NCBI GenBank assembly: GCA_022819645.1
Contig: JAJEGU010000035.1
Coordinates: 1-64,000, forward strand
Length of the DNA: 64,000 bases
Source of the DNA: Pseudomonadales bacterium
GTDB taxonomy: Bacteria > Pseudomonadota > Gammaproteobacteria > Pseudomonadales > Pseudohongiellaceae
Direction: 5' to 3'
The notes under the pieces were generated by a model that did no database searches, was not told the DNA's origin, and saw nothing but the letters and a program-made list of their open reading frames with translations. The translations under genes were made by a program, and so were the position numbers. Shown here piece by piece: positions 129 to 57,990 of this stretch; position 1 is the first letter of the stretch, and the number at the start of each line of letters is the position of its first letter.

Positions 129-290
129 AGGAGCCTGCGCCACAGGAATTCACGGCTGCAAATCCGCTCTCATCCACGCCCCCGGCCGCTCGATTTCGTT
201 GCATATTCACCAATATTCGCCTCAATCGACCGGCCGGGGGCGCGGCGATAGCGAATTTTCGCTTTCGCGAATTCCTGTGGCGCAGACTCC
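129..290 (+). repeat. dispersed ~160 bp structured repeat, full copy 1
   Basis: This copy begins aggagcctgcgcc and ends in the inverted form ggcgcagactcc. The outer arms (gcgccacaggaattc and gaattcctgtggcgc) are exactly complementary. A second inner pair (gcccccggccg and cggccgggggc) is also exact, with an apical gaatat/atattc-like hairpin region between. There is no coding capacity of its own, although frames run through it. Further full copies lie at 15146, 37245 and 57839. Positions where this copy differs from the 37245 copy change on both arms, so pairing is kept. It could be a MITE-like or REP/BIME-like element; no transposase is nearby. Confidence 0.85.
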
Positions 291-352
291 CAGGTTCGTT
301 GCAAACAATAGAAAATTGCCACGCCGTTCTCAAGTTGACGGTGCCAAAAACA

Positions 353-1537
353 TCACCCCCAATCCTGTCCCTTGCTTCCCGACAGCGCCCTGGCGAGCTC
401 GTCGAGGCTTTCGAGGCTGTGGGCGGAGCGGAAATCGGATACGTGGGGACGCATGGCTCTGGCGCCCTGTGTGAGTGGCTCGAAGCCGTCCCAGCGCAGC
501 AGCGGATTGAGCCAGATGAGGCGGCGGCTGGAGCGGGCAAGGCGCTGGATTTCGGATTCGAGCTGCGCTGGGTCATCGCGTTCCAGGCCGTCGCTGAGGA
601 GCAGGGTGGTTGCACCCTGACCGAGCACCCGGCGCGCCCAGAGTTTGTTGAACTGCTGCAGGCAGTGGCCGATGCGGGTGCCGCCGGACCAGTCCCGCAC
701 CGCCCCGGCGACGCCTTCGAGGGCCTGGTCCACATCGCTGTGGACGAGCTGGCGCGTGACATGGGTGAGCCGGGTGCCGAACACAAAGCTCCGCACCCGG
801 CGCCGGGCGGCGATGGCGTGCATGAAATGCAGGAACATCCGCGAATAGGCGCTCATGGAGCCCGAGATGTCGCACAGCACCACCAGCGGCGGCTGGCGGG
901 TCTTGCGCTGGCGGAATCTCAGCGGCGCAGCGGCGCCTGACCGCGCCAGCGCGCGCAGGCTTGCGCGGCGGTCGAGATGGCGGCCCCGGGGGTCGGGGCG
1001 GAAACGCCGGGTGGGGATACTGTCTTTGGGAAGCCACAAGCCGGCGATGGCGCGTTTGGCCTGTTCGAGTTCGGCGGCGGACATGTCTTCAAAATCCCTC
1101 TCCCTGAGGATTTCCGCGGGCGAACTCGTCAGCAGGCCGTGCAGTTCGAGCTGTTCTTCGGTGGATTCCCGCAGCCTTCCCTCGCCGCCCATGGCGTCTG
1201 CAAGCCGGCGGCGCACTTCGCTGGTGTTCGTCTCGTCTTCGAGCAGCAGATTCGGCAGCATGGCGCCCAGCATCCGCTCCATGAACGCCGGATTGCGCCA
1301 GAAGATGTGAAAAGCCTGATCGAACAGTTCGCGCTGGTCCCGGCGGCTGACGAAAATGGCGAACAGGCAGCTACGGAAATCGGCGCGGCTGGAAAAACCC
1401 ACCAGATTGACAGCGCGGATGGCGTCCAGCGCCTTGCCGGGGCCAACCGGCAGGCCAGCGGCGCGCAGCAAACGGGCGAAGTGCATGATGTTGGCGGTCA
1501 TGCGGCCGCCGTCCGCGAAAGTGGCTTCAAGCCGCAT
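353..1537 (-). CDS. VWA domain protein, CoxE-like
   Basis: A 394-residue protein of the CoxE family, which carries a von Willebrand factor A domain and assists maturation of CO-dehydrogenase-type molybdenum enzymes together with a MoxR-type ATPase. The metal-binding MIDAS motif DISGS is visible at about residues 223-227, with the supporting Thr in GGTRIG near 287 and LLLSDG near 315. The N-terminal 200 residues are the usual helical CoxE region. It is the last gene of the minus-strand molybdenum hydroxylase operon, 81 bp after the MoxR gene and separated from it by a hairpin. An internal Met at residue 13 is an alternative start. Family assignment is firm; the client enzyme is inferred from the neighbours. 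Confidence 0.9.
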   Translation of the reverse strand: MRLEATFADGGRMTANIMHFARLLRAAGLPVGPGKALDAIRAVNLVGFSSRADFRSCLFAIFVSRRDQRELFDQAFHIFWRNPAFMERMLGAMLPNLLLEDETNTSEVRRRLADAMGGEGRLRESTEEQLELHGLLTSSPAEILRERDFEDMSAAELEQAKRAIAGLWLPKDSIPTRRFRPDPRGRHLDRRASLRALARSGAAAPLRFRQRKTRQPPLVVLCDISGSMSAYSRMFLHFMHAIAARRRVRSFVFGTRLTHVTRQLVHSDVDQALEGVAGAVRDWSGGTRIGHCLQQFNKLWARRVLGQGATTLLLSDGLERDDPAQLESEIQRLARSSRRLIWLNPLLRWDGFEPLTQGARAMRPHVSDFRSAHSLESLDELARALSGSKGQDWG

Positions 1538-1571
1538 CGTTCACCATTCTGTCATCTCTGCACGGCTCCTC

Positions 1572-1610
1572 GTCCCGTCATTCTGCGACTTCGCTTCGCG
1601 CAGAATGAGC
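1572..1610. repeat. REP-like hairpin between CoxE-like and MoxR genes
   Basis: The arms cattctgcg (1579-1587) and cgcagaatg (1599-1607) are perfect inverted repeats around an 11 nt loop. The unit resembles the short REP-type hairpins scattered in many gammaproteobacterial genomes. It sits between two genes of one operon, so it may tune mRNA decay or attenuate transcription. It has no U-tract of the kind expected for a strong terminator. Confidence 0.6.
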
Positions 1611-1618
1611 CAAGCTCA

Positions 1619-2533
1619 TCAGGCGACCCGCGTCGACAGTTCCGTCTTCACTTCCTCAAGAATCCGCGCGGCTTCGCTGCCGCGGATGCGGGCGATGTCA
1701 TCCTGGTACTTGAGCAGGGCGCCCAGGGTGTCGTCGATAGCCCTGCTGTCCAGGGCGACCTGGTCGAGTTGCAGCAGGGACTGGGCCCAATCCAGTGTTT
1801 CGGCAACGCCGGGAAGCTTGTACAGATCCTGCTCGCGCAGGCGCTGGACGAAAGCGACCACATGACGGCTCAGGCCGGTGTCCATCCCCGGCAGCCTGGC
1901 CTCGATGATCGCGAGTTCGCGTTCGGCGTCGGGATAGTCGACCCAATGGTAGAGACAGCGCCGCTTGAGCGCGTCGTGGATTTCCCGGGTGCGGTTGGAA
2001 GTGATGACGACCAGGGGAGGCTCGGTCGCCTTGACCGTGCCGATTTCCGGGATCGAAATCTGGAAGTCCGACAGCAATTCCAGCAGATAGGCCTCAAAAG
2101 GCTCGTCGGTGCGGTCAAGCTCGTCGATGAGCAGCACCGGGGCGCCGCGCCCGTTACTGCGAAGCGCCGCAAGCAGGGGCCGCTCGATCAGAAAATCCGC
2201 AGCAAAGACATCATTCGCCAGATGCTGCCGGTCCACCGATCCGGCGGCTTCGGCGAGGCGAATCTCGATCATTTGCCGGGCATAGTTCCACTCGTACACC
2301 GCCGAGGAAACATCGAGCCCTTCGTAGCACTGCAACCGGATCAGGCGGCGGCCGAGGCCGGCGGCGAGCACCTTGGCGATTTCGGTCTTGCCGACGCCGG
2401 CCTCGCCTTCGAGAAACAGCGGCCGGCCCATTTGCAGGGACAGGAACAGCGTGGTGGCCAGCGGCCGGTCGGCAACGTAGCCGCCGTCCCGGAGCAGCCG
2501 CTGGACATCCTCGATGCTAGTGTGCTGTCCCAT
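1619..2533 (-). CDS. MoxR-family AAA ATPase, CoxD-like
   Basis: A 304-residue MoxR-type AAA+ ATPase. Walker A GEAGVGKT is at residues 43-50 and Walker B VLLIDELD at about 133-140, followed by the arginine-finger region ITSNRTRE. In cox operons such an ATPase partners the CoxE VWA protein to mature the molybdenum active site. The start chosen is the Met that begins the typical N-terminus, MGQHTS. A longer frame upstream exists only because it reads through a large palindrome. That palindrome covers the first five codons and the leader of this gene, so translation or transcription could be affected. The gene lies downstream of the FAD subunit and upstream of the VWA gene. Confidence 0.9.
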   Translation of the reverse strand: MGQHTSIEDVQRLLRDGGYVADRPLATTLFLSLQMGRPLFLEGEAGVGKTEIAKVLAAGLGRRLIRLQCYEGLDVSSAVYEWNYARQMIEIRLAEAAGSVDRQHLANDVFAADFLIERPLLAALRSNGRGAPVLLIDELDRTDEPFEAYLLELLSDFQISIPEIGTVKATEPPLVVITSNRTREIHDALKRRCLYHWVDYPDAERELAIIEARLPGMDTGLSRHVVAFVQRLREQDLYKLPGVAETLDWAQSLLQLDQVALDSRAIDDTLGALLKYQDDIARIRGSEAARILEEVKTELSTRVA

Positions 2534-2681
2534 GAGTTCGCCGCATTTCAGCGCGCCCCCGCAGTGTGTGGCAAGGCGCGGTCCGCAGGTAATGGCCCGC
2601 CCCATTGCCAGGGAGCGCAACGCGGCCACGCGCCGCGGGGGACGCGCTGAAATGCGGCGAACTCATGGGACAGCACACTAG
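2517..2681. repeat. ~165 bp near-perfect palindrome over the MoxR gene start
   Basis: A 39 bp arm at 2517-2555 recurs exactly, inverted, at 2643-2681. Pairing resumes inward with cccccgc (2556-2562) against gcggggg (2635-2641) after a single extra base. A further match ggtaatgg/ccattgcc surrounds the centre near 2598. The left arm contains the leader, start codon and first five codons of the MoxR ATPase gene. The right arm is an inverted copy of that DNA, so the structure looks like an inverted duplication. It could extrude as a cruciform or fold as an mRNA hairpin. Confidence 0.85.
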
Positions 2682-2696
2682 CCGTTGCGGGCATGC

Positions 2697-3491
2697 TCAG
2701 GCGCAGGCCGCCACCGCGCGCTGGGCCATTACCCGCACCAGATGCGCGCGATATTCCGCGCTGGCGTGGATATCGGCGTTCATGCGGTCCACCGGCGCCT
2801 CGAAATCAGCGAGCGCCGTCGGGCTGAAGTCTTTGGCAAGAGCTTCTTCCATCCGATAGGCGCGGTGGGCGCAGTCCGTCGCTCCCGTAACCGCGGCCCG
2901 CGCGCCGCCGCCGGTTCTGGCGACGAAGACGCCCACCATGGCATAACGCGAAGCCGGATTTTCGAACTTCATGTAGGCGGCGGCCTCGGGCCTCGGAAAA
3001 TCCACCGCGACGATAATCTCGTCTTCTTCCAGGGCGGTTTCAAACATGCCGGTGAAGAAATCCTCACCGGCGATTTCCCGGCGGTTGGTGCGCACGGTGG
3101 CGCCGAGGGCGATGATCGCGGCGGGATAATCCGCCGCCGGGTCGTTGTTGGCAATGGAACCGCCGATGGTGCCGCGGTTGCGCACGGCGGGGTCGCCGAT
3201 ATTGCCGGCGAGCGCGGCAAGGGCGGGAATCGCCTCTTGCACTTCGCCGGAGGCCGCCACTTCGGCATGGGAAGTCATGGCGCCGATGGTGACGATATTG
3301 CCATTGACGACAATGCCGCCAAGTTCGGCGATGGCGCCGAGATCAATCACATCGGATGGGCTGGCCAGCCGGTGCTTCATGGTGGGCAGCAGGGTTTGCC
3401 CGCCGGCGACGAGCTTGCCGTCGGCGGCGTTGGCGATCAGGTCCGACGCCTCGGCTACCGAAGCGGGTCGATGATATGAAAATGAATACAT
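2697..3491 (-). CDS. FAD-binding (medium) subunit of xanthine dehydrogenase-family enzyme
   Basis: 264 residues; the FAD-binding M subunit of a molybdenum hydroxylase, which passes electrons from the iron-sulfur subunit to FAD. The family's flavin motifs are visible: AGGQTLLP at residues 29-36 and TIGGS at 108-112, followed by NNDPAADYP. The start at MYSFSYH is supported by a gggaggaaa ribosome binding site, so the longer upstream frame is not used. It lies 22 bp behind the large subunit gene in the order S-L-M. Length is normal for a CoxM-type protein. The substrate of the complex cannot be told from this subunit. Confidence 0.93.
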
Positions 3492-3513
3492 TGCAATTTC
3501 CTCCCGTGCGGGT

Positions 3514-5865
3514 TCAGGCAGCGGATTGGCAAGCGCGCCAGACGGTTTCCGGCGTTGCCGGCATTTCCACATGTCTGGCGCCGATGGCGTTGGCGATGGC
3601 GTTGATGACCGCGGGCGGCGCGCCAATGGCGCCGGCTTCGCCGCAGCCCTTCACGCCAAGCGGATTGTGCGGCGGGTCCGTCGGCGCATAACCAATGCGG
3701 AAGTCCGGCGCATTGTCCGCCCGGGGCATGGCGTAGTCCATGAAGGACGCGGTCACGAGTTGGCCCTCGCTGTCGTACCGGCAGCCTTCGAGCAGGGCCT
3801 GGCCGATGCCGTGAACGATGCCGCCGTGAACCTGGCCTTCGACGATCATCGGATTGACGAGCTTGCCGAAATCATCCACCGCGGTGTAATCGGCGATTTC
3901 CACCTCGCCGGTATCCGGGTCCACCTCGACTTCGCAGATATGGGTGCCGGCGGGGAAGGAGAAGTTCATCGGGTCGAAGAATGCGTTTTCGTCAAAGCCG
4001 GGTTCGACGCCTTCCGGGTAGTTGTGGGGCACATAGGCGGTGAAGGCGACTTCTGCGATATTCATCGACTTGTCGGTGCCCGCCACTGTGTAGTTGCCAT
4101 CGGCGAATTCGATATCGCCCTCGGCGGCCTCCATGGCGTGGGCGGCGATCTTTCTGCCCTTGGCGATGAGCTTGTCACAGGCTTTGGCGATCGCCACGCC
4201 GCCCACGGCGAGGGAGCGCGAGCCGTAGGTTCCCATGCCGAACTGGGTTCGCGCGGTATCGCCGTGAATCACCTCGATATTCTCGAAAGGAACGCCGAGC
4301 TGGTCGCAGACGAGCTGGGCGAAGGTCGTCTCGTGGCCCTGGCCGTGGGAATGGGTGCCGGTGAACACCTGCACATTGCCGGTGGGGTTGAAGCGCACCT
4401 GGGCCGATTCCCACAGCCCGACGCCGCCGCCAAGCTGGCCCACAGCCGCCGAAGGCGCGATGCCGCAGGCTTCCACATAGGAGGAAAAACCGATGCCCCG
4501 CAGTTTGCCCCGGGATTTGGCTTCCTCCGCCCTGGCCGCGAATCCGGCGTAGTCGGCCAGCTCCATGGCCTGATCGAGGGCTGCTTCGTAGTCGCCGCTG
4601 TCGTAGCACTGCACCACCGGCGTCTGATAGGGAAAGGCGTCTTTCGGGATGAAGTTGCGCCGCCTGATTTCCGCCGGATCGAGGTCCATGTCCGCTGCGC
4701 AGACATCCACAAGCCGCTCCAGCAGATAGGTCGCTTCCGGGCGGCCGGCGCCGCGGCTGGCGTCCACCGGCGCGGTATTGGTGAATACCGCCTTCACTTC
4801 GGAATAGATGAGCGGCGTCGCGTATTGTCCGGCCAGCAGGAAGGCGTATAGATAACTCGGCACCATGGTGGAGAATGTCGAAAGATAGGCCCCGAGATTG
4901 GCTGTGGTTTGCACCCGCATGGCGAGAAATCTGCCGTTCTCGTCAAGCGCCATTTCCGCCCGGGATACATGATCTCGACCGTGTGCGTCAGCCATGAAGG
5001 CTTCGCTGCGGTCCCCGGTCCACTTGACGGGCCGATTGACCTTGCGGCAGGCCCAGCCCACGACGAGTTCCTCGGCGTAGACGAAAATCTTGGCGCCGAA
5101 ACCGCCGCCCACATCGGGGCCCACGACGCGCAACTTGTGCTCCGGCGCGAGTTGATTGAATGCCGCTAGCACGAGCCGGTGCACATGCGGATTCTGGGTC
5201 GTCATGTGCAGGGTGATCTCTTCGGTGCCCGAGTTGTATTCGCCGAGTGCGGCGCGGGGCTCCATGGGATTGGTCACCATGCGGTTATTGGTGAGTTCGA
5301 TACTGGAAATCCTGTGGGCCGAAGCGAAGGCTTCGTCGTTGGCGGCCTTGTCGCCAAAAGGCCAGTTGAAGCAGACATTGTTCGGCGCCACATCGTGAAT
5401 CTGCTGCTGGCCCTCGCCGGCCGCTTCACCGGTGCTGGAAACAGCCGGCAGCGGGCGGTATTTCACGTCCACCAGCTCCGCCGCATCCTGTGCCTGTGTC
5501 AGTGTTTCCGCAATGACAATGGCTACATGATCCCCAACATAATTGACCTTTCCCTGGGCTAGGGCCGGGTGGGGCGGCGCCCGATGGGGCTCGCCGTCGT
5601 CGCTGGTTACGGTAACGCCGCAGATGAGCGGGCCGATGCCGTCGGCGGCCAGATCATCGCCGGTGAGCACGGCAACCACCCCTGGGGCGGCGGCAGCGGC
5701 GGACGCATCAATGCCTTCGATGACGGCATGGGCGTGGGGAGAGCGCAGAAAATACGCGTGGGTCTGGCCGGCGACATTGATATCGCCGGTATAACGCCCT
5801 TTGCCGAGCAGAAATCGCTGGTCTTCCTTGCGGCGCACGCTGGCGCCGATGCCTTGTTCGCGCAT
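3514..5865 (-). CDS. molybdopterin-binding (large) subunit of xanthine dehydrogenase-family enzyme
   Basis: 783 residues; the catalytic subunit that binds molybdopterin cytosine dinucleotide. Family landmarks are the N-terminal [16 protein letters not shown] in the middle, and the C-terminal [16 protein letters not shown], which holds the active-site Glu. The active-site loop reads [11 protein letters not shown], not the AYRCSFR loop of true form I CO dehydrogenase, so CO oxidation is unlikely. A hydroxylation of an aldehyde, heteroaromatic or aromatic compound is more plausible, but the substrate is unknown. The start MREQGIG is 2 bp beyond the stop of the small subunit gene. Cytoplasmic, with no signal peptide seen. 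Confidence 0.93.
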
Positions 5866-5867
5866 GT

Positions 5868-6335
5868 TCAATCCCCCATGGCCCGGGCGCCTTCCCGGAT
5901 CGACTTGACGATGTTCTGGTAGCCGGTGCAGCGGCAGATATTGCCATTGAGTTCCCGGCGCACCGTGGCCGCATCGAGCTCCCTGCCGTGGCGGTTGACG
6001 ATATCGAGTCCCGACATGACCATTCCCGGCGTGCAGAAGCCGCATTGCAGGCCATGGTTGTCCATGAAAGCCTGCTGCATGGGATGCAGTTCCGCGCCAT
6101 TGGCAAGCCCTTCGATGGTGGTGACGTCGCAGCCGCCGGCCATGGCCGCGAGCATGGTGCAGGACTTGACGGACTTGCCGTCCACCATCACCACGCAGGC
6201 ACCGCACTGGCTGGTGTCGCAACCGACATGGGTGCCGGTCAGACGAAGCTGTTCCCGCAGAAAGTCCACGAGCAGCGTTCTGGCCTCCACCTCCCCCGAG
6301 GCGGCCTGGCCATTCACAGTAAGATCAATTTTCAT
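5868..6335 (-). CDS. [2Fe-2S] (small) subunit of xanthine dehydrogenase-family enzyme
   Basis: 155 residues; the iron-sulfur subunit carrying two [2Fe-2S] clusters that move electrons from molybdenum to FAD. The plant-type ferredoxin motif [10 protein letters not shown] lies near residues 38-47, with the fourth Cys in KSCTM. The second cluster uses CGFCTPG and CRCTGY. Length and layout are standard for CoxS-like proteins. It is directly followed by the large subunit (2 bp gap) and preceded by a 100 bp gap after the small membrane protein gene, which may hold an internal promoter. Confidence 0.95.
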
Positions 6336-6435
6336 ATTCAGCGTTCTCCTTCCGAATTTGTCAGCCGGCCTCTGCGTCGGCGAGTTCCGGCCTATTGAAT
6401 CACATCGGGACCTGGTAGCCTATTCCATGCCCAAT

Positions 6436-6771
6436 CTACAAATCGTGGAACCATATCGGAATCAACAACCACGCCGGAAACACAAAGGCGGCGATCACCA
6501 GCACCACCGATCCTCCGCGGGATTGCGCATATCGCGCACAAATCAACAGCAGCGGCGTCAACAGGAACAGTCTGGCGACGATGGTGTTGCCACCCAGTCC
6601 GGCATACAGGGCCAGGGGAGTCGAAAAAAAGGCAGCCAACCAGAAATAACCCTTGTTGGGTGAAAAAATCCCGGCCACTGCGTTCACTGGGGACAGCAAG
6701 GTGGAAAGCCAGAACATCAAGAGGACCAGAGTGATGCCCGCGCCTGAACCGGAAACCTGCAGTTCGGGCAT
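6436..6771 (-). CDS. small multi-pass membrane protein, unknown
   Basis: 111 residues with about three hydrophobic segments (near residues 10-30, 45-60 and 65-100), so an inner membrane protein. I do not recognise a family. Its start codon overlaps the stop of the coxG-like gene by one base (TGATG), which implies translational coupling. It precedes the iron-sulfur subunit gene. Since the coxG-like protein also ends in a membrane helix, the two could anchor or assist the molybdenum enzyme at the membrane. That role is inference from position only. Confidence 0.7.
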
Positions 6772-7349: not shown

Positions 7350-7474
7350 AATGTCGATGTCCCCATTGCAGTGTCGGCGACGGCTTGTTTTCCCCGGTGG
7401 CCGGAGAATATCATCACCGCGCAAAGCAATGCGACACCATCCCACGAAATTTCGCTCGCCACAAGGAATCCACC
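7350..7474. promoter_or_regulatory. divergent promoter region
   Basis: The 125 bp gap separates the start of the minus-strand molybdenum hydroxylase operon from the plus-strand ThDP enzyme gene, so it must contain both promoters or be shared. I cannot pick -35/-10 boxes or an operator with confidence. Confidence 0.4.
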
Positions 7475-9073: not shown

Positions 9074-9108
9074 CAGAAGCCTGCGCCGCAGGAATTCACG
9101 GCTGCAAA
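9074..9108 (+). repeat. dispersed repeat, left-half copy
   Basis: About 35 bp match the left end of the dispersed element, from cagaagcctgcgcc to cacggctgcaaa. It lies 34 bp after the stop of the ThDP enzyme gene, in sense orientation to it, and joins directly to a 5'-truncated XRE antitoxin gene. The right half is absent. Confidence 0.75.
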
Positions 9109-9126
9109 GCCGAGTTGCGCGAATCC

Positions 9127-14935: not shown

Positions 14936-15124
14936 ATGACACCTGAATTGATTGCAATATTTGCGCTCGGCATTTCCATCCTGGCGTTTTTGTGGAATAT
15001 CCAGCGCGACATTGCGATGCTGCACAGGGACCATACCGATCTGCGGGAGCGAATGTCGCGCCTGGAAGGGCTGTTCGAAGGTTTTACCCAAAGCAAGTCT
15101 GCCCGCCCCCTATCGAATTCCTAG
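14936..15124 (+). CDS. small membrane-anchored coiled-coil protein
   Basis: 62 residues with one N-terminal transmembrane helix (ELIAIFALGISILAFLWNI), then a charged amphipathic stretch, MLHRDHTDLRERMSRLEGLF, typical of a short coiled coil. Such proteins are common and mostly uncharacterised. A good promoter candidate lies upstream. The stop TAG at 15122-15124 is part of a CCTAGG sequence at the edge of the dispersed repeat, so the last residues may have been shaped by that insertion. Confidence 0.7.
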   Translation: MTPELIAIFALGISILAFLWNIQRDIAMLHRDHTDLRERMSRLEGLFEGFTQSKSARPLSNS

Positions 15125-15145
15125 GAACCTGGGGCGCAGGCTCCT
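15125..15145 (+). repeat. dispersed repeat, terminal fragment in inverted contact
   Basis: The sequence ggcgcaggctcct (15133-15145) is the right-terminal 13 bp of the dispersed element. It meets the left end of the next full copy at 15146, giving an exact 26 bp palindrome, ggcgcaggctcct/aggagcctgcgcc. This looks like the remnant of one copy joined head to head with another through a CCTAGG junction. Confidence 0.7.
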
Positions 15146-15308
15146 AGGAGCCTGCGCCGTAGGAATTCACGGCTGCAAATCCGCTCTCATCCGCGCCCCT
15201 GGCCGCTCGATTTCGTTGAATATCCACCAATATTCGCCTCAATCGACCGGCCTGGGGCGCGGCGATAGCGAATTTTCGCTTTCGCGAATTCCTGCGGCGC
15301 AGGCTCCT
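15146..15308 (+). repeat. dispersed ~160 bp structured repeat, full copy 2
   Basis: A 163 bp copy from aggagcctgcgccg to ggcgcaggctcct. The outer arms pair with one G-U type position (gcgccgtagg against cctgcggcgc). The inner arms gcccctggccg/cggcctggggc carry one T-T mismatch, so this copy is slightly decayed relative to those at 129 and 37245. The apical hairpin gaatat-ccacca-atattc is present. It sits between the small membrane protein gene and selD, in sense orientation to both. Confidence 0.85.
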
Positions 15309-15380
15309 GGCGTCTCTTTGGCCCGCTCCGGCGCGGAAAGGTACAATCGCCGCTTTGCCGGATTCCGGGGCGGAGCGGCC

Positions 15381-28761: not shown

Positions 28762-28810
28762 GGCGCGGATGAGAGCGGATTTGCAGCCGTGAATTCCTGC
28801 GGCGCAGGCT
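28762..28810 (-). repeat. dispersed repeat, left-half copy
   Basis: About 49 bp match the left half of the element on the minus strand (ggcgcggatgagagcgg ... ggcgcaggct). It abuts the Gfo/Idh oxidoreductase gene and contributes its TAG stop (28809-28811). The right half is absent. Confidence 0.8.
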
Positions 28811-29873
28811 ACTGGGAAACCAGCGAATCAAACTCCACGGCTTCGCCGGTTTCAATCGATTGCTGGGCCGCGAGCCCGATCAGCACCGACATCAGGCCGT
28901 CCCGCGCGCTCACCGCCGCGGGCCGGTTTTCACGAATCGCTTGAATGAATTCGCGATGTTCCAGAAAGCTTGAGCCATGATGAAATCCGGTATGCCTGAC
29001 CCGCGGGTCCATTGAGACGGGGATCGCATTTCCCGCCCTGCCCTCTCGTTTGCCGAGGTACAGTTCCTCGCCGGGAACCGTGGTTTCCAGTTTGCCGATA
29101 TTGCCGGTCACGGCGATTTGCTGCTCGTGGCGGGAGCCTTCCGCGAACATGCACAGGTCGAGCATGGCCCGGGCGCCACTGTCGAATTCCACAATAACGT
29201 AGGCATTGTCGAGAATGTCGGGAATTTCGCCACCGTAGACTTCGTCCAGGTGGTTCACCGACTGGGCGCCCGAGGCAAGCACGCGGGTTGGATTTCCGGG
29301 CATCACCAGATTCATCAGATCGAAAAAGTGGCAGCATTTCTCCACCAGGGTGCCGCCGGTGTTCCGGCTGAAGCGGTTCCAGTTGCCCACTTTCTTCAGA
29401 AAAGGAAACCGGTGTTCGCGTATCGCGCACATTTTCACTTCACCGACTTCGCCCAGATGCCGGAGCAGGGCGCTGATGGTGGGAATGTAGCGATACTCAA
29501 GACCCACCCAGACGACTCCCTTGTGCGACTTCGCGGCCGAATCGACTTCCAAGGCATCGGCAAGCGTGGTGCACATGGGCTTTTCGAGCAGGACATGCTT
29601 GTCGGTGGCGAAAATGTCCCGCATGACTTCGATATGGGTGTGATTGGGCGAAGCCACCACCAGGGCATCGACATCGCCGGCGCCGAGAAGCTCCCGGTGG
29701 TCTTCATGAACCCGGGGAGAAAAGCGCTGGCCACAAGCCTTGCGGGCCCATTCGCGGGATTGGGTGTCCGGGTCGGCCACCGCGACAACGGCAACATCAT
29801 CCATCGCCACGAGATTGCGAATATGCTCGCAGCCCATCATGCCGGTGCCGATAATGCCGTAACGAATGGTCAA
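28809..29873 (-). CDS. Gfo/Idh/MocA family oxidoreductase
   Basis: 354 residues from a TTG start at 29871-29873, preceded by a strong ggcgggggag ribosome binding site; the frame upstream is spurious. The N-terminal Rossmann fold shows YGIIGTGMMGCEHIRN and the conserved EKP of this family is in LLEKPMCTT. The C-terminal part is the usual beta-sheet domain. Members oxidise or reduce sugars and cyclitols with NAD(P); the substrate here is unknown. The stop codon lies in the dispersed-repeat half copy. Confidence 0.93.
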   Translation of the reverse strand: MTIRYGIIGTGMMGCEHIRNLVAMDDVAVVAVADPDTQSREWARKACGQRFSPRVHEDHRELLGAGDVDALVVASPNHTHIEVMRDIFATDKHVLLEKPMCTTLADALEVDSAAKSHKGVVWVGLEYRYIPTISALLRHLGEVGEVKMCAIREHRFPFLKKVGNWNRFSRNTGGTLVEKCCHFFDLMNLVMPGNPTRVLASGAQSVNHLDEVYGGEIPDILDNAYVIVEFDSGARAMLDLCMFAEGSRHEQQIAVTGNIGKLETTVPGEELYLGKREGRAGNAIPVSMDPRVRHTGFHHGSSFLEHREFIQAIRENRPAAVSARDGLMSVLIGLAAQQSIETGEAVEFDSLVSQ

Positions 29874-37234: not shown

Positions 37235-37244
37235 TCGGTTCCCC

Positions 37245-37405
37245 AGGAGCCTGCGCCGTAGGAATTCACGGCTGCAAATCCGCTCTCATCCACGCCCTTG
37301 GCTGCTCGATTTCGTTGAATATCCACCAATATTCGCCTCAAACGATCAGCCAAGGGCGCGGCGATAGCGAATTTTCGCTTTCGCGAATTCCTACGGCGCA
37401 GGCTC
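37245..37405 (+). repeat. dispersed ~160 bp structured repeat, full copy 3
   Basis: The best-paired copy. Outer arms gcgccgtaggaattc and gaattcctacggcgc are exact complements; inner arms gcccttggctg and cagccaagggc are exact and differ from the 129 copy at three positions, each with the partner base changed too. The apical gaatat/atattc hairpin is present. Unlike the other copies it lies upstream of a gene start (minus-strand GST-like gene), not behind a stop codon. Confidence 0.88.
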
Positions 37406-37596
37406 CAGACTTAACGTTTTATCCATCGGTCGCATTGTAGGAAACCTGGCCGCTCCATGGAAATACCGGGAACAAGGGAATCACGTCGCCACTGCTCAAT
37501 TCGCCGGCGAAGACACGGCGCGAGGTTTACACCGGCAACCGGTACGGCGTAGAGTTCGGGGGAACGTCCATCCAACCAGTTCCCCGGGAGTTCCGC

Positions 37597-50258: not shown

Positions 50259-50377
50259 GCTTGTCTGGCCGGGATGACAAAATTCCCGGCTACCATAGCC
50301 GAAATTTCACAGCGAAGCCAAGTTCGTTGTACAGACGACAGCAATTCTCATTATGGCAATGGGCGCGCTCACATCAG

Positions 50378-50584: not shown

Positions 50585-50718
50585 GGGAAATCCCTTTCAG
50601 GGCCAAGGATTGTTTTCTGGTCATGAACCCTTTATCCGCACATGTATTCCATGATTTAGAGAATACAATATGTAATTTTCAATCAGGGCGTGTTAACACG
50701 TCCTAATCTCACAACAGA

Positions 50719-51624: not shown

Positions 51625-53315
51625 GCGAATCGATCAGTTACGCCAGCGGCGCGAGCGAGCGGCCCCTGCTCGGCGTGACGATTCCGCACTTTTTCGATCG
51701 CGTAGTCGCCGAACATGGCGGCCGCGAAGCCCTGGTCAGCGTACATCAGGACATACGCCTGACTTACTCGCAACTCGCCGAGCGCGTGAACGAACTGGCC
51801 CGCGCCTTCATCGCCTCGGGCTTCGCCAGGGGCGACCGGGTCGGCATCTGGTCGCCGAACAATGTCGAATGGACTCTGGTTCAATACGCCACGGCGAAGG
51901 CCGGACTGATCCTTGTCAACATCAATCCCGCCTACCGTGTGCATGAACTGGCCTACGTGCTTGAACAGTCCGGCTGCAAAGGGCTGGTGATCCAGAATCG
52001 CTTCAAGACTTCGGACTACGTCGCCATGCTCGGCGAAGTTTGCCCTGAACTGGAAAGCGCGGCGCCGGGCGCCTTGCGTTCGGCGAAATTTCCCGAACTC
52101 GGCACGATAGTTTCGACGACTGAGCCTGAATCGAACGGAATTTTCGGCTGGCGGGATTTTCTCGCCCTCGCCGGCGGTTGCAGCGGGGAAGATCTCGCGG
52201 CGCGGCAGGCGGAGTTGGATATGGACGATCCGATCAATATCCAGTACACCAGCGGCACGACGGGATTTCCCAAGGGCGCGACGCTGTCGCATCACAATAT
52301 CCTCAACAACGCCCGCTTCGTCGCCGCGATCATGAACTTCAGCGAAGACGACCGGCTCGTGGTGCCGGTACCGCTTTATCATTGCTTCGGCATGGTGATG
52401 GGCAATCTCGGCTGTCTCACTCACGCCGCCTGCGTCATATATCCCGCCGAGAGTTTCGAGCCGGCTTCGGTGTTGCGGACGGTGCAGGAAGAGCGGGCGA
52501 CGGCGCTGTTCGGCGTACCGACGATGTTCATCGCCGAGCTGGCCTTGCCCGACTTCGCCGAGTACGACCTGGGCAGTTTGCGCACCGGCATCATGGCCGG
52601 TTCGCCTTGCCCGGTCGAAACCATGAAACAGGTCAACGAACTGATGCACATGACCGAGGTCGAGATCGCCTACGGCATGACCGAAACGAGCCCGGTGAGT
52701 TTCCAGACCCGGGTCGATTCACCCCTGGACAAGCGCGTCAGCACCGTGGGCCTCGTGCATCCGCATCTCGAGGTCAAGATCATCGATCCCGAATCCGGCG
52801 CCATCCAGCCGACGGGAGTCATGGGCGAGCTATGCACCCGCGGATACTCCGTGATGCTCGGCTACTGGAACGCCGAGGAGGCCACGCGGGCGGCCATCGA
52901 CCGCGACGGCTGGATGCACACCGGCGACACCGCGGTCATGGACGAGGAGGGCTACGTGAACATCGTCGGCCGCATCAAGGACATGATCGTGCGCGGCGGC
53001 GAGAACGTGTATCCCAGGGAAATCGAGGAATACCTGATGACCCACGAGGCCATCGAGGCGGTGCAGGTAACCGGCGTTCCCGACCCGAAATACGGCGAGG
53101 AAATCATCGCCTGGGTGCAACTCAGGGACGGCGCTGTATTGTCAGAAGATAACATCCGTGAGTTCTGCCGCGGCCGCATCGCCCACTTCAAGGTGCCGCG
53201 CTACATCCGCTTCAGCGACGACTTCCCCATGACCGTCACCGGCAAGGTGCAAAAATTCCGCATGCGCGAAACCAGCATCGCCGAACTCGGCCTGAAAGAA
53301 ATCCGCACCGCCTGA
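51621..53315 (+). CDS. AMP-binding acyl-CoA synthetase
   Basis: 564 residues of the ANL superfamily. The P-loop [16 protein letters not shown] lies near residues 208-223, A8 [13 protein letters not shown] and [19 protein letters not shown] lead the C-terminal domain, and the catalytic Lys is in [10 protein letters not shown] near the end. It activates a fatty or other carboxylic acid to acyl-AMP and then acyl-CoA. Coupled to the BASS transporter gene by an ATGA overlap, so it probably processes that transporter's substrate. Confidence 0.93.
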
Positions 53316-53403
53316 GGTCCTTTTTCAGAGATAGGAAAACTCGTTGTCGCAGGCCGTGAAAGAATATAGTATGTACGAAGATGTACACATGCTGGAGGGC
53401 GGA

Positions 53404-53658
53404 ATGACTACCATCAGCAGCCGGGTCTTCATGAATGGGAACAGTCAGGCGGTTCGAATACCCCGCGAGTTCAGGCTTGCAAGTTCGCGCGTGGAAATCA
53501 CCCGCAAGGACAATGGCGATCTGGTGATTCACGCAACTCCGGAAAATCGCGGCGCCGCGCTTCTGGAAACACTTGCTTCCTTTGACGACGATTTCATCGA
53601 TATTCTGGAAGAAGACCGCGCGAACCAGCCGGGACTGCAGGATCGGGAAGATCTATGA
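53404..53658 (+). CDS. vapB: VapB-type antitoxin, AbrB/MazE fold
   Basis: 84 residues from MTTISSRVF. The first ~45 residues form the swapped-hairpin AbrB domain (VFMNGNSQAVRIPREFRL), the usual DNA-binding part of VapB antitoxins. The acidic C-terminus, FDDDFIDILEEDR, would bind the toxin. A longer frame upstream has a Met at 53344 but the start at 53404 fits the family, with ggagggcggaatg in front. The stop overlaps vapC by four bases. Confidence 0.92.
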   Translation: MTTISSRVFMNGNSQAVRIPREFRLASSRVEITRKDNGDLVIHATPENRGAALLETLASFDDDFIDILEEDRANQPGLQDREDL

Positions 53659-54077
53659 GATACATGCTGGATACGAATATTCTGATTTATCTCATGAAGA
53701 ACAAACCCGCGGTCGTCGCCGAACGAGTCAATGCGATCGGCGCGGACGACGAATTGTACATGTCGTTTTTCACCTACGCCGAATTGCTCAAGGGCGCGGA
53801 GCGAAGTACCAGGAAAGTCAAGGTGTTACGCAATCTGGAACAGTTGATCCGTCAGGTGCCGGTACGTTACGCGGTCGATCGGCGGCTTTGCGGGCATTAC
53901 GCGCAACGGTTCACTGAACTGAAGGTGGCGGGTACGCCAATCGGCGCCAACGATTTGTGGATAGCTTGCCACGCATTGGCCGAGGATGCCGTTCTCATAA
54001 CGAACAACACTCGCGAATTTCAGCGCGTTTCGGGTCTCGCGGTCGAGGACTGGAGCGGAAGCCGCGACCGGAATTGA
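53655..54077 (+). CDS. vapC: VapC-type PIN toxin
   Basis: 140 residues of the FitB/VapC type: MRYMLDTNILIYLMKNKP has the first Asp (residue 6), FTYAELLKGAER the Glu, IGANDLWIACHALA the third acid and LITNNTREFQRV the fourth region. It is an endoribonuclease acting on initiator tRNA or similar RNAs, neutralised by the overlapping vapB product. All catalytic acids are present. Confidence 0.93.
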   Translation: MRYMLDTNILIYLMKNKPAVVAERVNAIGADDELYMSFFTYAELLKGAERSTRKVKVLRNLEQLIRQVPVRYAVDRRLCGHYAQRFTELKVAGTPIGANDLWIACHALAEDAVLITNNTREFQRVSGLAVEDWSGSRDRN

Positions 54078-54369
54078 AGCCTCCAACTCAGGGCAACCGG
54101 AGTGCCACGAGTTGGCCGGGTTGGTTGCGGCGGACGCTGCCGGCTTGCATGAGCAGGTCTCCCATGACCATCTCCGGTGTCACCGGTCTGCGGGGTCTCC
54201 ACGCCTTCCAGCAGGGGATTGTCGGCGATATTGGGCGGCGTTTCGCCGACAGGGATGTCCCACAGCTTTTCGCCGGTGTTCATGTCATAGGCCGCCAGGC
54301 CCATCAACAGCGGCTTGTAGACCGGGAGACCCTGAATATTCGGCAGAAATTCGCGGCCCATGCCCGGCG
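54078..54369 (-). pseudogene. C-terminal remnant of a PQQ-dependent dehydrogenase
   Basis: On the minus strand the frame reads GREFLPNIQGLPVYKPLLMG and AAYDMNTGEKLWDIPVGETP, matching the C-terminal blade of the quinoproteins at 30364 and 32325 (for example AIDMNAGEILWQVPNG). After VETPQTG one base is lost or gained; the other frame continues TPEMVMGDLLMQAGSVRRNQ and ends in a stop at 54078. The 5' side is cut by a half copy of the dispersed repeat at 54370. The gene is thus truncated and frameshifted. Confidence 0.85.
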
Positions 54370-54428
54370 GCCAGGGGCGTGGATGAGAGCGGATTTGCAG
54401 CCGTGAATTCCTACGGCGCAGGCTCCTA
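54370..54428 (-). repeat. dispersed repeat, left-half copy
   Basis: A 59 bp left-half copy on the minus strand (ccaggggcgtggatgagagc ... ggcgcaggctcctag). It provides the TAG stop of dapB (54426-54428) and cuts the PQQ dehydrogenase remnant on its other side. Confidence 0.85.
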
Positions 54429-55235
54429 GTCGGCTGGAGTGAGGACATCGGTCATGGTGTAGAGGCTGGGGGGCTTGCCAGCCAGCCAGCGGGCGGCGCG
54501 GAGGGCGCCGTTGGCAAAGGTGGCGCGGTTGCTGGCCTTGTGGGTGATTTCGAGGCGTTCCCCCGGGCCTGCAAAGATCACGGTATGTTCGCCAACGATA
54601 TCGCCGCCGCGAATGGTGGCGAAGCCGATGGTGTTTCGGTCGCGCTCTCCGCCGATTCCCCGCCGGCCGTAGATGGCGCAGTCCTCGAGACGCTGGCCGC
54701 GTGATTCGGCTACCGCCCGGCCCATGGCGAGCGCGGTGCCCGATGGGGAGTCCTTCTTGTGGCGGTGGTGGGCCTCAATGATTTCCACATCAAAACCTTC
54801 GCCGAAGGCGGCGGTGGCCTGTCTGAGCAATTGCAGGCTCAGATTGACGCCGAGGCTCATGTTGGGGGCATGCAGCACCGGGGCCGCTTCCGCGCAGGCT
54901 GCGAGCAATTCGTGATGTTCCGGGCCAAGACCGGTGGTTCCCACCACGAGCGCCTTGCGGTGCGCGCGGCAGTATTCGGCATGCCCGGCCAGCGCAGCGG
55001 GGCTGGTGAAATCGATCAGCATATCGAAATCCCCGGCGCACCCGCTGAGTGAATCCACAGTTTCCACTCCTGCCTCACGGCCGCTTGCCAGCAGTCCGGC
55101 GTCAAGCCCGAGGGAGGGGTCGCCGGCTTCCACCGTGGCGGCGCCGAGGCGCAATTCCGGCCCGGCGTCCATGACCGCTTCAATCAGGCTCTTGCCCATA
55201 CGGCCCGCCGCGCCAGCGATGGCGATTCTCAACAT
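54426..55235 (-). CDS. dapB: 4-hydroxy-tetrahydrodipicolinate reductase
   Basis: 269 residues, normal for DapB, which reduces 4-hydroxy-tetrahydrodipicolinate in lysine and diaminopimelate synthesis. NAD(P) motif GAAGRMGKSL at residues 8-17; the catalytic loop EAHHRHKKDSPSGTA contains the His and Lys residues. The last codons and stop, LTPAD then TAG, touch the dispersed-repeat half copy, and the protein end looks normal. Confidence 0.97.
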   Translation of the reverse strand: MLRIAIAGAAGRMGKSLIEAVMDAGPELRLGAATVEAGDPSLGLDAGLLASGREAGVETVDSLSGCAGDFDMLIDFTSPAALAGHAEYCRAHRKALVVGTTGLGPEHHELLAACAEAAPVLHAPNMSLGVNLSLQLLRQATAAFGEGFDVEIIEAHHRHKKDSPSGTALAMGRAVAESRGQRLEDCAIYGRRGIGGERDRNTIGFATIRGGDIVGEHTVIFAGPGERLEITHKASNRATFANGALRAARWLAGKPPSLYTMTDVLTPAD

Positions 55236-55593
55236 CTGTCAGTATCCGCGCAACTATTCACCGGACATGCTAACCCCCCGGTACAGCGCGTATCAATGTC
55301 GATGCTCAAAGACATGGCCCGGAATCTCACGAGATTTGGCATCCATACTGATCAGCTCTCCCACTCTTTTGTGATCGGAAAATTACATTACTCAAGTTAG
55401 TGGCCTGATATTTAATACTTTCTAGGATATTCAGGAATTTATCTAGCCAAGATCATGGGTTGATTTTCACGGAAACAGGCGGCAAAATCGGCGCACACAA
55501 GTGAACCCTTGTTTCGTGGGCTTCATTTTCATAACGCCAAAACAATCATAATTTCGGCTATTCGACCTCACCATGGGGCGAGAGCGCTGCCAT
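55236..55593. other. intergenic stretch with probable divergent promoters
   Basis: About 350 bp separate dapB (minus) from the sigma factor gene (plus). The middle part (55370-55480) is distinctly AT-rich compared with the surroundings, so promoters are likely there. I cannot name boxes with confidence, and no gene or strong hairpin is visible. Confidence 0.5.
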
Positions 55594-56094
55594 ATGCCAC
55601 AAGAAAACAACCAGAGCCTGGACTGGGACGATTTACTGCCCGGGCTGTATGACGAAATTTTCGGGCTTGCCTTCAAGATGTGCGACTCCAGGCCCCAGGC
55701 GGAAGACCTGGCCCAGGAGACTTTCCTGCGCGCCTGGCGTTTCCAGCACACCTTGCGCGATACCAGCGCCGTGAAGCAATGGCTGTGCCGAATTCTGCAC
55801 AATGAAAACAATCGCAGGTTCCAGCGGGTCCGCTTCGAGACATACGATCACGAATTGCCCGCCCAGCCCGGCGACCGGAGCTATGAACCGGACCGGCGGG
55901 CAGAATCCCACTTGTTGCAAAGAGCGATAGCAGAGCTTGGCGACAACTATCGCAAACCATTGATGTTGCATATATTCGGCGGCTTGACCGGCAAGGAAAT
56001 CGCTTCCAGGCTAAATCTGAACGATGGCGCGGTCACCACGCGATTGTTCCGGGCCCGGGCGGAGCTCAACCGGAAGTTCGGAACACCGCCGTGA
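55594..56094 (+). CDS. RNA polymerase sigma factor, sigma-70/ECF family
   Basis: 166 residues from MPQENNQSL (a Met seven codons earlier is possible). Region 2 is seen in LYDEIFGLAFKMCDSRPQAEDLAQETFLRAWRF (the DLAQETFLRAW signature), and region 4 in AIAELGDNYRKPLMLHIFGG followed by TGKEIASRLNLNDGAVTTRL. It would direct polymerase to a small regulon. No anti-sigma gene is adjacent; the stop overlaps the GTG start of comF (GTGA). Confidence 0.92.
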   Translation: MPQENNQSLDWDDLLPGLYDEIFGLAFKMCDSRPQAEDLAQETFLRAWRFQHTLRDTSAVKQWLCRILHNENNRRFQRVRFETYDHELPAQPGDRSYEPDRRAESHLLQRAIAELGDNYRKPLMLHIFGGLTGKEIASRLNLNDGAVTTRLFRARAELNRKFGTPP

Positions 56095-56819
56095 AATTCG
56101 CTCTGGCGCAGCTGTTACGCCGGACACGGGCCTGGCTACCCGCACTTTGCCTGGTTTGCCGGCGGACGGTGCATCGGGAGTACAGCCTGTGCCGGCAATG
56201 TGAAGCCGATTTGCCCTGGCTCGACGCGGTCTGCCCGCGCTGTGGGGAACAAGCCGATGGCACGGCGTCCGGCCCCTGTTCACGCTGCAAGCTTGAACCG
56301 CCGGATTTCGACTCCTGCTTCGCCCCCCTTGCCTACCGTTCCCCGGTGGACAAGCTGATTCTTGGCTACAAGTTCAGCGGTGATTTTGCCGGCGGCTATG
56401 CCTTGTCGCGGATTCTGGCCCGGATCATGACCCGGCGCTGGAGCGAAGGCCGACGACCCGACCTGCTGCTGCCGGCGCCGCTGCATGTGGCAAGGTTGCG
56501 GCAGCGAGGCTTCAATCAGGCTCTCGAAATCGCCAGAACGATTGCCGCGGTCAATGAAATCCCGCTGGAAGCCAGGGCCCTGCGCAAATCGAGAGCAACG
56601 CCGCCGCAAACGGAAATGTCCGACGCCGGACAGCGCGGCGCAAATCTCCGGGGGGCTTTCGAGATGGCGGATGCGAAAACGCTCCACGGCGTCCGGCGCG
56701 TGACCCTCGTTGACGACGTGGTGACCACAATGAGTACGGCAAACGAACTCAGCCGCCTGCTCAGGAAAGCGGGTATTGCCGAAGTGGAAGTCTGCTGTCT
56801 GGCCCGGGCGGTGCTGTGA
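56091..56819 (+). CDS. comF: ComF family protein
   Basis: 242 residues with a zinc-finger N-terminus (CLVCRR, CRQC, CPRCGE, CSRCK) and a C-terminal phosphoribosyltransferase fold with VTLVDDVVTTMSTANELS as the PRPP loop. ComF is needed for DNA uptake in competent bacteria and for single-strand handling after import. The start is GTG, overlapping the sigma factor stop, so both are co-translated; this linkage is not the usual context. Confidence 0.93.
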   Translation: MKFALAQLLRRTRAWLPALCLVCRRTVHREYSLCRQCEADLPWLDAVCPRCGEQADGTASGPCSRCKLEPPDFDSCFAPLAYRSPVDKLILGYKFSGDFAGGYALSRILARIMTRRWSEGRRPDLLLPAPLHVARLRQRGFNQALEIARTIAAVNEIPLEARALRKSRATPPQTEMSDAGQRGANLRGAFEMADAKTLHGVRRVTLVDDVVTTMSTANELSRLLRKAGIAEVEVCCLARAVL

Positions 56820-56824
56820 ATTCC

Positions 56825-56865
56825 CGGGGCGTGGATGAGAGCGGATTTGCAGCCGTGAATCCCTA
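56825..56865 (-). repeat. dispersed repeat, left-half copy, end-deleted
   Basis: About 41 bp on the minus strand match the left half (ggcgtggatgagagcgg to gccgtgaat), but the terminal stem tcctacggcgcaggc is missing and the sequence jumps to ccctag. The TAG is the stop codon of the receptor remnant gene at 56863. Confidence 0.75.
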
Positions 56866-57720
56866 GAACTGATACTTGATGCGGCCGTAGGCCACGCGGC
56901 CGTTCTGGTCGAGAATGCGGGTGGCGGAATTGAGGATTTGCATGGTCTTGCGATCAAACAGGTTCTGGATACCAAAGGAGATCACCGCCCGGTCATCGGA
57001 CCCGGCCGCCATGCGATAGCCGTACTCAAGATCCACCGTGGTGATGTTGTCCACCAGATCATTGATCTCTTCCATGCCGAGTTCGGACAGGTCGCGGGAA
57101 GAGTCAAAATAACGCGTGATCGCGCTGGCGGTATGATTGCCGAATTCCCAGCTCAGTTTCAGGTTGCTGCGCAGCTTGGGGCTGGTGAGATTTTGCACCG
57201 GCAGATTGCTGTTGACGGCATCGAGCAGGTTTTCGTCGAGAAGGCCTTCGGTATTGTAGAAATCCTGCAGATAGCTGGCCCGGGTACTGAGGGTGAACAG
57301 GCCGAAGCGGCTGGTGTTCCAGGCGTAGGCTGCGCCCACATCAAAGCCGCTGCTGCGCAGGTTGGGCTCGGGCAGGGAATTTTGCAGCGGCGTCACGTCG
57401 AACTGGCTTTGCCAGACATTGGCGTCGAGCTTGAGCCCGTCGATGGGAGTGGTTTGCAGGCCAAGGCTGTAGTTGAGCGCGTCTTCCACCAGACCATTAC
57501 GCAAATCTCCGGGCTCGGCGGTGCGCGCGATCTTGATCAGGGAGCCGGCCTCAACGGCTGTTCCGGCCGGAGCAATGCTGAAACTGACCAGGGCGCGCTC
57601 GGAATCCGCCGCTGCGCCGGCATTTTCCTGCGCCTGGGCGGACCAAACCGGCAATAGCGCACAAACCGCCATTGCCCGCAGCATTACCCTGGCCGACCCT
57701 TGATTCAGTTTTTGCTTCAC
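56863..57720 (-). pseudogene. TonB-dependent receptor, internally deleted; C-terminal barrel kept
   Basis: 285 residues from a GTG start with an aggaaaa ribosome binding site. A normal leader (LRAMAVCALLPVWSAQAQ) is followed almost at once by the C-terminal part of a TonB-dependent receptor barrel: LKLDANVWQSQFDVTPLQ, alternating beta strands, SFGIQNLFDRKTMQIL and the terminal aromatic RIKYQF. The plug domain and most of the barrel (about 600 residues) are missing, yet the frame is intact. It may be a tiny outer membrane protein or an in-frame deletion remnant. Confidence 0.75.
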
Positions 57721-57838
57721 TTTTCCTGCTTCGCTTATGCCCCACCCAAGGCACCGCTGGCGCGGCACTGCGCCCACTTCCCTATCTGGCCACAAGCCGA
57801 AACAGTTTGCAAGCGCTATTTCGCGTATTTTGTCGCCT

Positions 57839-57990
57839 GGGAGCCTGCACCGCAGGAATTCGCGAAAGCGAAAATTCGCTATCGGCGCGCCCCTGGCTGG
57901 TCGGTTGAGGCGAATTGCAACGAAATCGAGCGGCCAGGGACGTGGATGAGGGCGGATTTGCAGCTGTGAATTTCTACGGAGCAGGCTCTT
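57839..57990 (-). repeat. dispersed ~160 bp structured repeat, full copy 4, partly deleted
   Basis: A 152 bp copy on the minus strand. The apical hairpin is shortened (gaattgcaac where others have gaatattggtggatattcaac). The outer stem carries several mismatches, so the copy is decaying. It lies directly behind folK, whose final codons and TAG stop (57974-57976) are inside it. Confidence 0.85.

What the first reader, a model, noticed from the sequence alone, without database searches (positions are those of the whole stretch)
129..57990. Dispersed ~160 bp element whose stems covary between copies
Four full-length copies (129, 15146, 37245, 57839) share nested inverted repeats. Between the 129 and 37245 copies the outer stem changes from ccacagg/cctgtgg to ccgtagg/cctacgg, and the inner stem from gcccccggccg/cggccgggggc to gcccttggctg/cagccaagggc; every changed base has a matching change on the other arm. 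The copies at 15146 and 57839 show partial decay. Compensatory change means selection or a copying mechanism preserves the fold in RNA or single-stranded DNA. MITEs usually drift without this. It may be a REP/BIME relative mobilised by a RAYT-type enzyme elsewhere, or an RNA element.
Basis: seen in the sequence. Interest (0 to 1): 0.75.

Follow-up and report, generated by a model that had tools for sequence, protein, structure and literature searches.

The report
Palindromic mini-transposon with covarying arms
This is a short, gene-less jumping DNA element, common in a small group of uncultured bacteria; the two halves of its hairpin really do change together, but the evidence points to the arms copying each other in DNA rather than to a working RNA.

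Summary
The element is a 159-bp quasi-palindrome with perfect 21-bp inverted ends. The draft genome (3.1 Mb) has 162 + 163 matches to the end (up to 3 mismatches); 58 distinct 159-bp copies were read from it. Paired columns covary beyond chance: 7 of 9 testable structural pairs at p<0.01, against 12 of 1410 other distant pairs.

58 of 114 copies have exact 4-bp direct repeats of CTAG-like sites, and 9 of 11 insertions with an empty sister site overlap by 4 bp. That fits a DDE transposase, not a RAYT; no Y1 gene was found in the 6 genomes searched. RNA function is not supported: orthologous copies diverge like their flanks, with changes as common in stems as outside (30 of 37; 79% of columns are paired), and there is no Rfam match. 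A strand-specific G-U bias in tree-inferred changes is not significant per pair.

Best reading: a palindromic MITE moved in trans by an unidentified, perhaps IS5-type, transposase; its arms are occasionally homogenised, probably by template switching. A new family of a known kind.

The parts
131..289 (+). full element copy, CCACAGG / CCCCCGG type
   Evidence: flanking 4-mers CTAG 127-130 and CCAG 290-293
15148..15306 (+). full element copy
   Evidence: flanking 4-mers CTAG 15144-15147 and CTGG 15307-15310
37247..37405 (+). full element copy, CCGTAGG / CCCTTGGCTG type; used as the query
   Evidence: flanking 4-mers CCAG 37243-37246 and CAGA 37406-37409, no exact duplication
57841..57988 (-). 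copy with both ends, 148 bp, internal loss in the loop, opposite orientation; one end overlaps the 3' end of an HPPK-like gene
   Evidence: 4-mers CTGG 57837-57840 and TTGG 57989-57992 on the + strand
9077..9112 (+). partial copy, left end only
28762..28811 (-). partial copy, left arm only
54367..54425 (-). partial copy, left arm only, bordered by CTAG at 54426-54429
56827..56865 (-). partial copy, arm fragment
15125..15143 (.). possible 19-bp mini-derivative (two end fragments back to back) between CTAG 15121-15124 and CTAG 15144-15147; my reading by eye, not tested

Best explanation
A palindromic MITE: a 159-bp non-autonomous DNA transposon with 21-bp perfect inverted ends (GAGCCTGCGCCGTAGGAATTC), moved in trans by a DDE transposase, perhaps of IS5 type, that cuts CTAG-like sites with a 4-bp stagger. 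Shown: repeated dispersal, 4-bp duplications, empty sites, shorter derivatives that keep both ends, real covariation. Inferred: the class and IS5-type identity of the transposase, which was not found. Also inferred: that the covariation comes from occasional arm-to-arm copying in DNA (template switching or conversion in the well-paired segments) during the element's history, not from selection on an RNA fold after insertion.
For: Mobility. Of 114 oriented distinct copies 58 have exact 4-bp direct repeats, shuffled mean 41.8, maximum 53 in 1000; k=3 gives 2 and k=5 gives 0. In one search, 11 insertions have a sister locus where the flanks nearly meet; in 9 they overlap by exactly 4 bp, including CTTG-element-CTTG against an empty CTTG. 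Derivatives of 50-70 bp keep both ends; a 64-bp form with one junction sits at six distinct sites, five of them in this genome, and a further 64-bp spacing is seen in L287. Resident IS5-type elements also border on CTAG: an IS5_4 element with CTAG on both sides and several IS5_3 ends. Covariation is pair-specific: 7 of 9 structural pairs p<0.01 against 12 of 1410 others. No fold constraint after insertion: in six orthologous comparisons 37 differences in 954 bp (3.9%) against a mean flank divergence of 4.9% (my arithmetic); 30 of 37 lie in paired columns (126 of 159 columns are paired); one compensated pair. The share of paired among changed states at the seven covarying pairs is alike in copies with 0, 1 and 2 or more private mutations (0.41, 0.43, 0.44).
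Against: No element with these ends and a transposase gene was found. CTAG borders are not special to IS5: an IS1634-type element here also lies between CTAG repeats. Empty-site 4-mers often differ from both flanking 4-mers (CTAT, CGTG, ATAG, GTAA). In the larger set of 143 copies the direct/inverted contrast among 36 copies with two non-palindromic flanks is only 13 against 7. Exact 4-bp repeats flank only 3 of the 6 copies of the 64-bp form. Consensus mismatches of the middle arms stay unrepaired in nearly all copies, so arm copying would have to be confined to well-paired segments. In paired columns tree-inferred changes G>A plus T>C exceed C>T plus A>G (107 against 59), the reverse of unpaired columns (15 against 38), and 33 of 61 G/T columns against 20 of 61 A/C columns carry them; changes from a Watson-Crick pair to a mispair give A-C 94 and G-U 35. 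Read on the reverse strand this is an excess of G-U, as an RNA made from that strand would predict. It is absent in singletons (10 against 11) and not significant when each mispair state is counted once (A-C 37, G-U 25, p=0.16; 26 against 21 without pattern-fixed pairs, p=0.56).
Confidence: 0.62

Rival explanations
1. The fold is selected for as a step of transposition: hairpins, or matched ends, are needed, so only source copies with paired stems spread, and the covariation records that.
For: Four covarying pairs (4/156, 12/148, 13/147, 14/146) lie in the ends a transposase would bind. REPINs are reported to show common compensatory hairpin changes (PMC3116915).
Against: The 64-bp and 52-bp forms lack the inner stem yet occur at several sites, though deletion in place is not excluded; three covarying pairs (52/107, 53/106, 62/97) are in that stem. 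Copies without private mutations carry mispairs in the same proportion as others.
Confidence: 0.22
2. A functional RNA (regulatory hairpin, sRNA or 3' element) conserved by selection on base pairing.
For: Very strong fold, significant covariation, and a strand-specific bias of changes in paired columns that would suit G-U tolerance on the reverse strand.
Against: No Rfam family at gathering threshold; no stem constraint between orthologous copies; the bias is absent in singletons and not significant per pair; truncated copies are common. Expression could not be examined.
Confidence: 0.06
3. A REP/REPIN-type element moved by a RAYT.
For: Hairpin doublet architecture, high copy number, compensatory changes as in REPINs (PMC3116915).
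Against: PF01797 without match in the 6 genomes searched; 4-bp target duplications.
Confidence: 0.03
4. The apparent covariation is only shared ancestry of a few subfamilies.
For: Related copies were used; some changes are shared by many copies, and a few unpaired columns are also linked (40/42, 100/102, 46/72).
Against: Association between unpaired columns more than 10 apart is rare (12 of 1410) while 7 of 9 structural pairs are associated; 13/147, 134 columns apart, are linked although the top-20 lists show few links to columns between. Slid structures give 0-2 compensated same-branch doubles against 7.
Confidence: 0.07

Closest known systems
Prokaryotic MITEs, perhaps of the IS5 family (IS5 and IS427 groups)
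   Same: Short, no gene, inverted ends, direct repeats, size variants with conserved ends (review PMC10969869, passages read). 4-bp CTAG direct repeats are reported for an IS5-group element (PMC9241763, one passage read) and a 4-bp consensus CA/TAG/A for E. coli IS5 (PMC11677980, passages read).
   Different: Pairing runs along nearly the whole 159 bp, arms covary, and no IS with the same ends was found.
REPINs / REP-BIME elements
   Same: Palindromic hairpin doublets in many copies; compensatory changes reported as common (PMC3116915, passages and part of section 10).
   Different: No RAYT/Y1 match in the 6 genomes searched; 4-bp target duplication.
ERIC, Correia/NEMIS, RUP, Rickettsia palindromic elements
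   Same: Short interspersed palindromic repeats (PMC10969869 passages; otherwise recalled).
   Different: Different hosts; comparison rests on general knowledge, no alignment was made here.
Template-switch mutation in hairpins (a mechanism, not an element)
   Same: Can create compensatory double changes and perfect stems in DNA (PMC8794818, abstract and passages read).
   Different: Shown there for RNA genes; its action here is inferred from patterns.

Membership tests
MITE (non-autonomous TIR transposon) | perfect or near-perfect terminal inverted repeats | tested here: met
   consensus columns 1-21 pair fully with 139-159
MITE (non-autonomous TIR transposon) | target site duplication of constant length | tested here: met
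   4 bp: 58 of 114 exact, other lengths at chance; flanks overlap by 4 bp in 9 of 11 insertions with a nearly closed sister site
MITE (non-autonomous TIR transposon) | many dispersed copies, too short for a transposase gene | tested here: met
   162 + 163 end matches in the genome; 159 bp
MITE (non-autonomous TIR transposon) | parent IS sharing the ends | tested here: inconclusive
   none found in fetched loci, transposase loci or TIR pattern searches, whose listings were truncated
IS5-family derivative | 4-bp CTAG-like (CTAR) target | tested here: met
   CTAG..CTAG in 46 of 114; but an IS1634-type element shares the border
IS5-family derivative | ends related to a resident IS5-family element | tested here: not met
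   resident IS5_4 and IS5_3 elements end GGAAGCTCTGATCA and GGCGTGTTAACAC, unlike GAGCCTGCGCC
REPIN / RAYT system | Y1 (RAYT) transposase in the genome | tested here: not met
   PF01797 0 of 6 genomes, control positive in 5 of 14
REPIN / RAYT system | insertion without target duplication (recalled for Y1 enzymes) | tested here: not met
   4-bp duplication
Structured RNA family | match to a known family | tested here: not met
   0 Rfam matches at gathering score over the whole window
Structured RNA family | pairing maintained in orthologous copies | tested here: not met
   30 of 37 differences in paired columns, one compensated pair
Structured RNA family | G-U tolerated over A-C on one strand | tested here: inconclusive
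   bias in tree-inferred changes, none in singletons, not significant per state
Structured RNA family | transcript | not testable with these tools
   no expression data available

The most novel reading that the evidence does not exclude
Well over a hundred copies of one palindrome keep covarying with no fold constraint on the inserted copies: arms are homogenised in DNA by template switching within well-paired segments while neighbouring mismatched arm segments stay fixed. If so, this family is a natural replicate experiment showing strong, pair-specific covariation that standard RNA-discovery tests would call a functional RNA.
Probability: 0.4. Interest if true: 0.6.

Novelty: new member of a known kind. 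Interest (0 to 1): 0.42.

Why it matters
Covariation is usually taken as the best evidence for functional RNA. Here it is strong, local and not explained by subfamilies, yet the orthologous copies compared show no stem constraint. That makes this family a test bed for separating selection from template-switch arm copying, and a caution for RNA searches in genomes rich in mobile palindromes.

Tried and rejected
Autonomous partner. One search listed 25 convergent end pairs 300-5000 bp apart in fetched DNA; I took them as neighbouring copies or chance ends and did not search each for genes. PF13359: 0 of 6 genomes. PF13586 and PF01609 gave 2 and 12 places in the own genome; 7 of their proteins were typed: ISAs1, two IS1634, two IS1380, two IS5. 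Ends near them: only a 64-bp copy beside an IS1380-type fragment (L121); the rest look like chance. IS5_3 and IS5_4 hits in the 6 genomes have other ends; copies or solo ends of the element lie in L258, L264, L287, L288 without enclosing a transposase gene. TIR pattern in 55 genomes without the element (40 of the genus, 15 of other genera): 6 places in 5 genomes, all at 2 mismatches, while the reversed control matched 4 times; taken as chance. Patterns meant to exclude the MITE body gave truncated lists. Plasmids and phages no match; viral contigs 0 exact matches to the end pattern.

A first TSD and pair count counted each palindromic copy in both orientations; redone with fixed orientation. 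Hairpin mismatch repair at each transposition: rejected because consensus arm mismatches persist. Bias of the samples: copies L039-L112 were fetched by a pattern that fixes element columns 15-51; L001-L030 are the best BLAST matches of 40 scored; most further own-genome copies were fetched for an exact end. Rows dropped: 11 of 114 copies not exactly 159 bp (alignment); copies without flanks; the orthologous pair L072/L144 (161 and 158 bp) and the redundant L060/L249 comparison; 4 of the 17 near-closed comparisons, which were not drawn out.
Full report
WHAT IS THERE. The standard length is 159 bp: 103 of 114 distinct oriented full copies. Consensus columns 1-21 and 139-159 pair perfectly, a middle arm segment pairs with regular mismatches, and an inner stem (about 47-65 with 94-112) leads to a short loop. 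Folding of the 37245 copy is extreme (RNA z -11.8, DNA z -13.0).

HOW WIDESPREAD. The own genome (3.1 Mb, 85 contigs) has 162 + 163 matches to the 21-base end with up to 3 mismatches, against 0 + 0 for the reversed control. In a sample of 99 genomes of the family, 6 (the own one included) have the element, all in one genus (at most 8 candidates scored per genome). Named hits were 74 stretches from four 'Pseudomonadales bacterium' metagenome assemblies; the scan stopped at its limit. No match in plasmids, phages or, for the end pattern, viral contigs. Several contigs end in or next to a copy.

IT IS A TRANSPOSON. Of 114 distinct copies, 58 carry an exact 4-bp direct repeat; shuffling flanks gives 41.8 on average and at most 53 in 1000, and repeat lengths 3 and 5 give 2 and 0. 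Because CTAG is its own complement, the informative copies are those with two non-palindromic flanks: 12 of 26 exact direct against 4 exact inverted, the latter all CCAG/CTGG; in the larger set of 143, 13 of 36 against 7. Rare 4-mers occur as direct pairs (CGAG twice; CAAG, CTTG and CCAA once each). One search found 11 insertions with a sister locus where the flanks nearly meet; in 9 they overlap by exactly 4 bp, in the others by 12 and 1. Thirteen of the 17 comparisons were drawn out (overlap 4 in 11). In the clearest, CTTG-element-CTTG faces an empty CTTG. In others the empty 4-mer matches one side (CTGA, CTAG, CCAG) or neither (CTAT, CGTG, ATAG, GTAA), and the loci L049, L053 and L209:3467 have a flank that is itself a repeat. 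I read CCAG and CTGG flanks as decayed CTAG, which is inference. CTAG is very rare here (16 in the window against 221 expected from composition), and 25 of 143 full copies abut another copy or another CTAG-bordered repeat.

DERIVATIVES. Forms of 50-70 bp keep both ends; a 64-bp form with one junction occurs at six distinct sites (L221 differs by a base beside the junction), five in this genome, exact 4-bp repeats at 3 of 6; a further 64-bp spacing is in L287. These lack the inner stem, so that stem is probably not needed for movement, though recurrent deletion in place is not excluded.

COVARIATION. It is real. On 103 aligned copies, 70 cells change on both sides against 22.9 expected (0 of 500 shuffles), although the number of pairs involved (8) is reached by 37 of 500. 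On a tree, 7 compensated same-branch doubles against 0.43 (maximum 6 in 2000) and 0-2 for slid structures. Among polymorphic column pairs, 7 of 9 structural pairs have p<0.01 against 12 of 1410 others more than 10 columns apart; in the own-genome set of 58 copies 5 of 9 against 10 of 692; in all 126 distinct copies 7 of 14 against 14 of 1774. So it is not a by-product of a few subfamilies. It is confined to the outer stem (4/156, 12/148, 13/147, 14/146) and inner stem (52/107, 53/106, 62/97).

WHY PROBABLY NOT RNA. The same insertion compared between genomes differs by 37 of 954 bp (3.9%) over six comparisons at five loci, against a mean flank divergence of 4.9% (my arithmetic). Of those, 30 of 37 fall in paired columns, as expected if pairing is ignored (126 of 159 columns), and one pair is compensated. 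No Rfam match. The result that speaks most for RNA: in paired columns tree-inferred G>A plus T>C exceed C>T plus A>G (107 against 59), the opposite of unpaired columns (15 against 38; few G there), and Watson-Crick pairs turn into A-C 94 times and G-U 35 times. On the reverse strand that is an excess of G-U. It is absent in singletons (10 against 11) and not significant when each mispair state counts once (37 against 25, p=0.16; 26 against 21, p=0.56); a few common polymorphisms drive it. Expression was not testable.

WHY ARM COPYING. The associations are pair-specific; alleles of the covarying pairs occur on both arms; one copy (L024) has a matching transversion on both arms, and in another (L035) 2 of 3 changed left-arm bases match its own right arm. 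The share of paired among changed states is the same in copies with 0, 1 and 2 or more private mutations (0.41, 0.43, 0.44), as for a steady mutation-and-copying process. Template switching is documented as a way to create compensatory changes (PMC8794818, abstract and passages). Against it, the mismatched middle arm segments are almost never corrected; I suppose switching needs long perfect local pairing, which is inference. Selection among source copies during transposition remains the main rival.

WHICH ENZYME. No RAYT was found: PF01797 0 of 6 genomes, with the control search positive in 5 of 14. Other CTAG-bordered elements live here: an IS5_4 element with ends GGAACCTCTGATCA / GGAAGCTCTGATCA, several IS5_3 ends GTGTTAACACGCC-CTAG, and an IS1634-type element between CTAG repeats. 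An IS5-group element with 4-bp CTAG repeats is in print (PMC9241763, passage). None has the ends of this element, so the IS5-type assignment rests on the target site alone and is weak.

VERDICT. A new family of palindromic MITE, with genuine covariation best explained at the DNA level. Six paper searches listed no paper on this element; none searched for its sequence, and they cover open-licence papers only.

Noticed in passing
window 2517-2681: Another CTAG-bordered palindrome: 45-nt arms 98% complementary (TGTGCTGTCCCATGAG...), 77 nt between them, CTAG at 2517 and 2678; an end of this kind abuts one of 143 full copies of the main element.
   Followed up: partly
L105, L010, L085, L108; IS at L272 1124-2225: A second CTAG-bordered repeat family with ends GTATTCTCTGA and GGAAGCTCTGA; the latter resembles the end of a resident IS5_4-type element, a possible parent.
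   Followed up: partly
L053, L066, L021, L103: A further repeat with TCATTCTGCGC / GAGATTCTGCGACT arms, sometimes next to copies of the main element.
   Followed up: no
window 1-64000: CTAG occurs 16 times where composition predicts 221, and 5 of the 16 (127, 2517, 2678, 15144, 54426) border mobile repeats: the element targets a very rare tetramer.
   Followed up: partly
window 57974-57988: The 3' end of an HPPK-like gene lies inside the element's end, which seems to supply its TAG stop; the T/C variation at element column 13 would turn such a TAG into CAG.
   Followed up: partly
G000 contigs C14, C61, C28, C62, C60: An IS5_3 (IS427-like) element appears at several contig ends with CTAG at its border.
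   Followed up: partly
L159 138, L161 1123, L163 1151, L173 1824, L160 1504: Solo ends: CTAGGAGCCTGCGC followed by unrelated sequence, with no second end nearby; unexplained, perhaps decayed mini-forms or deletions.
   Followed up: no
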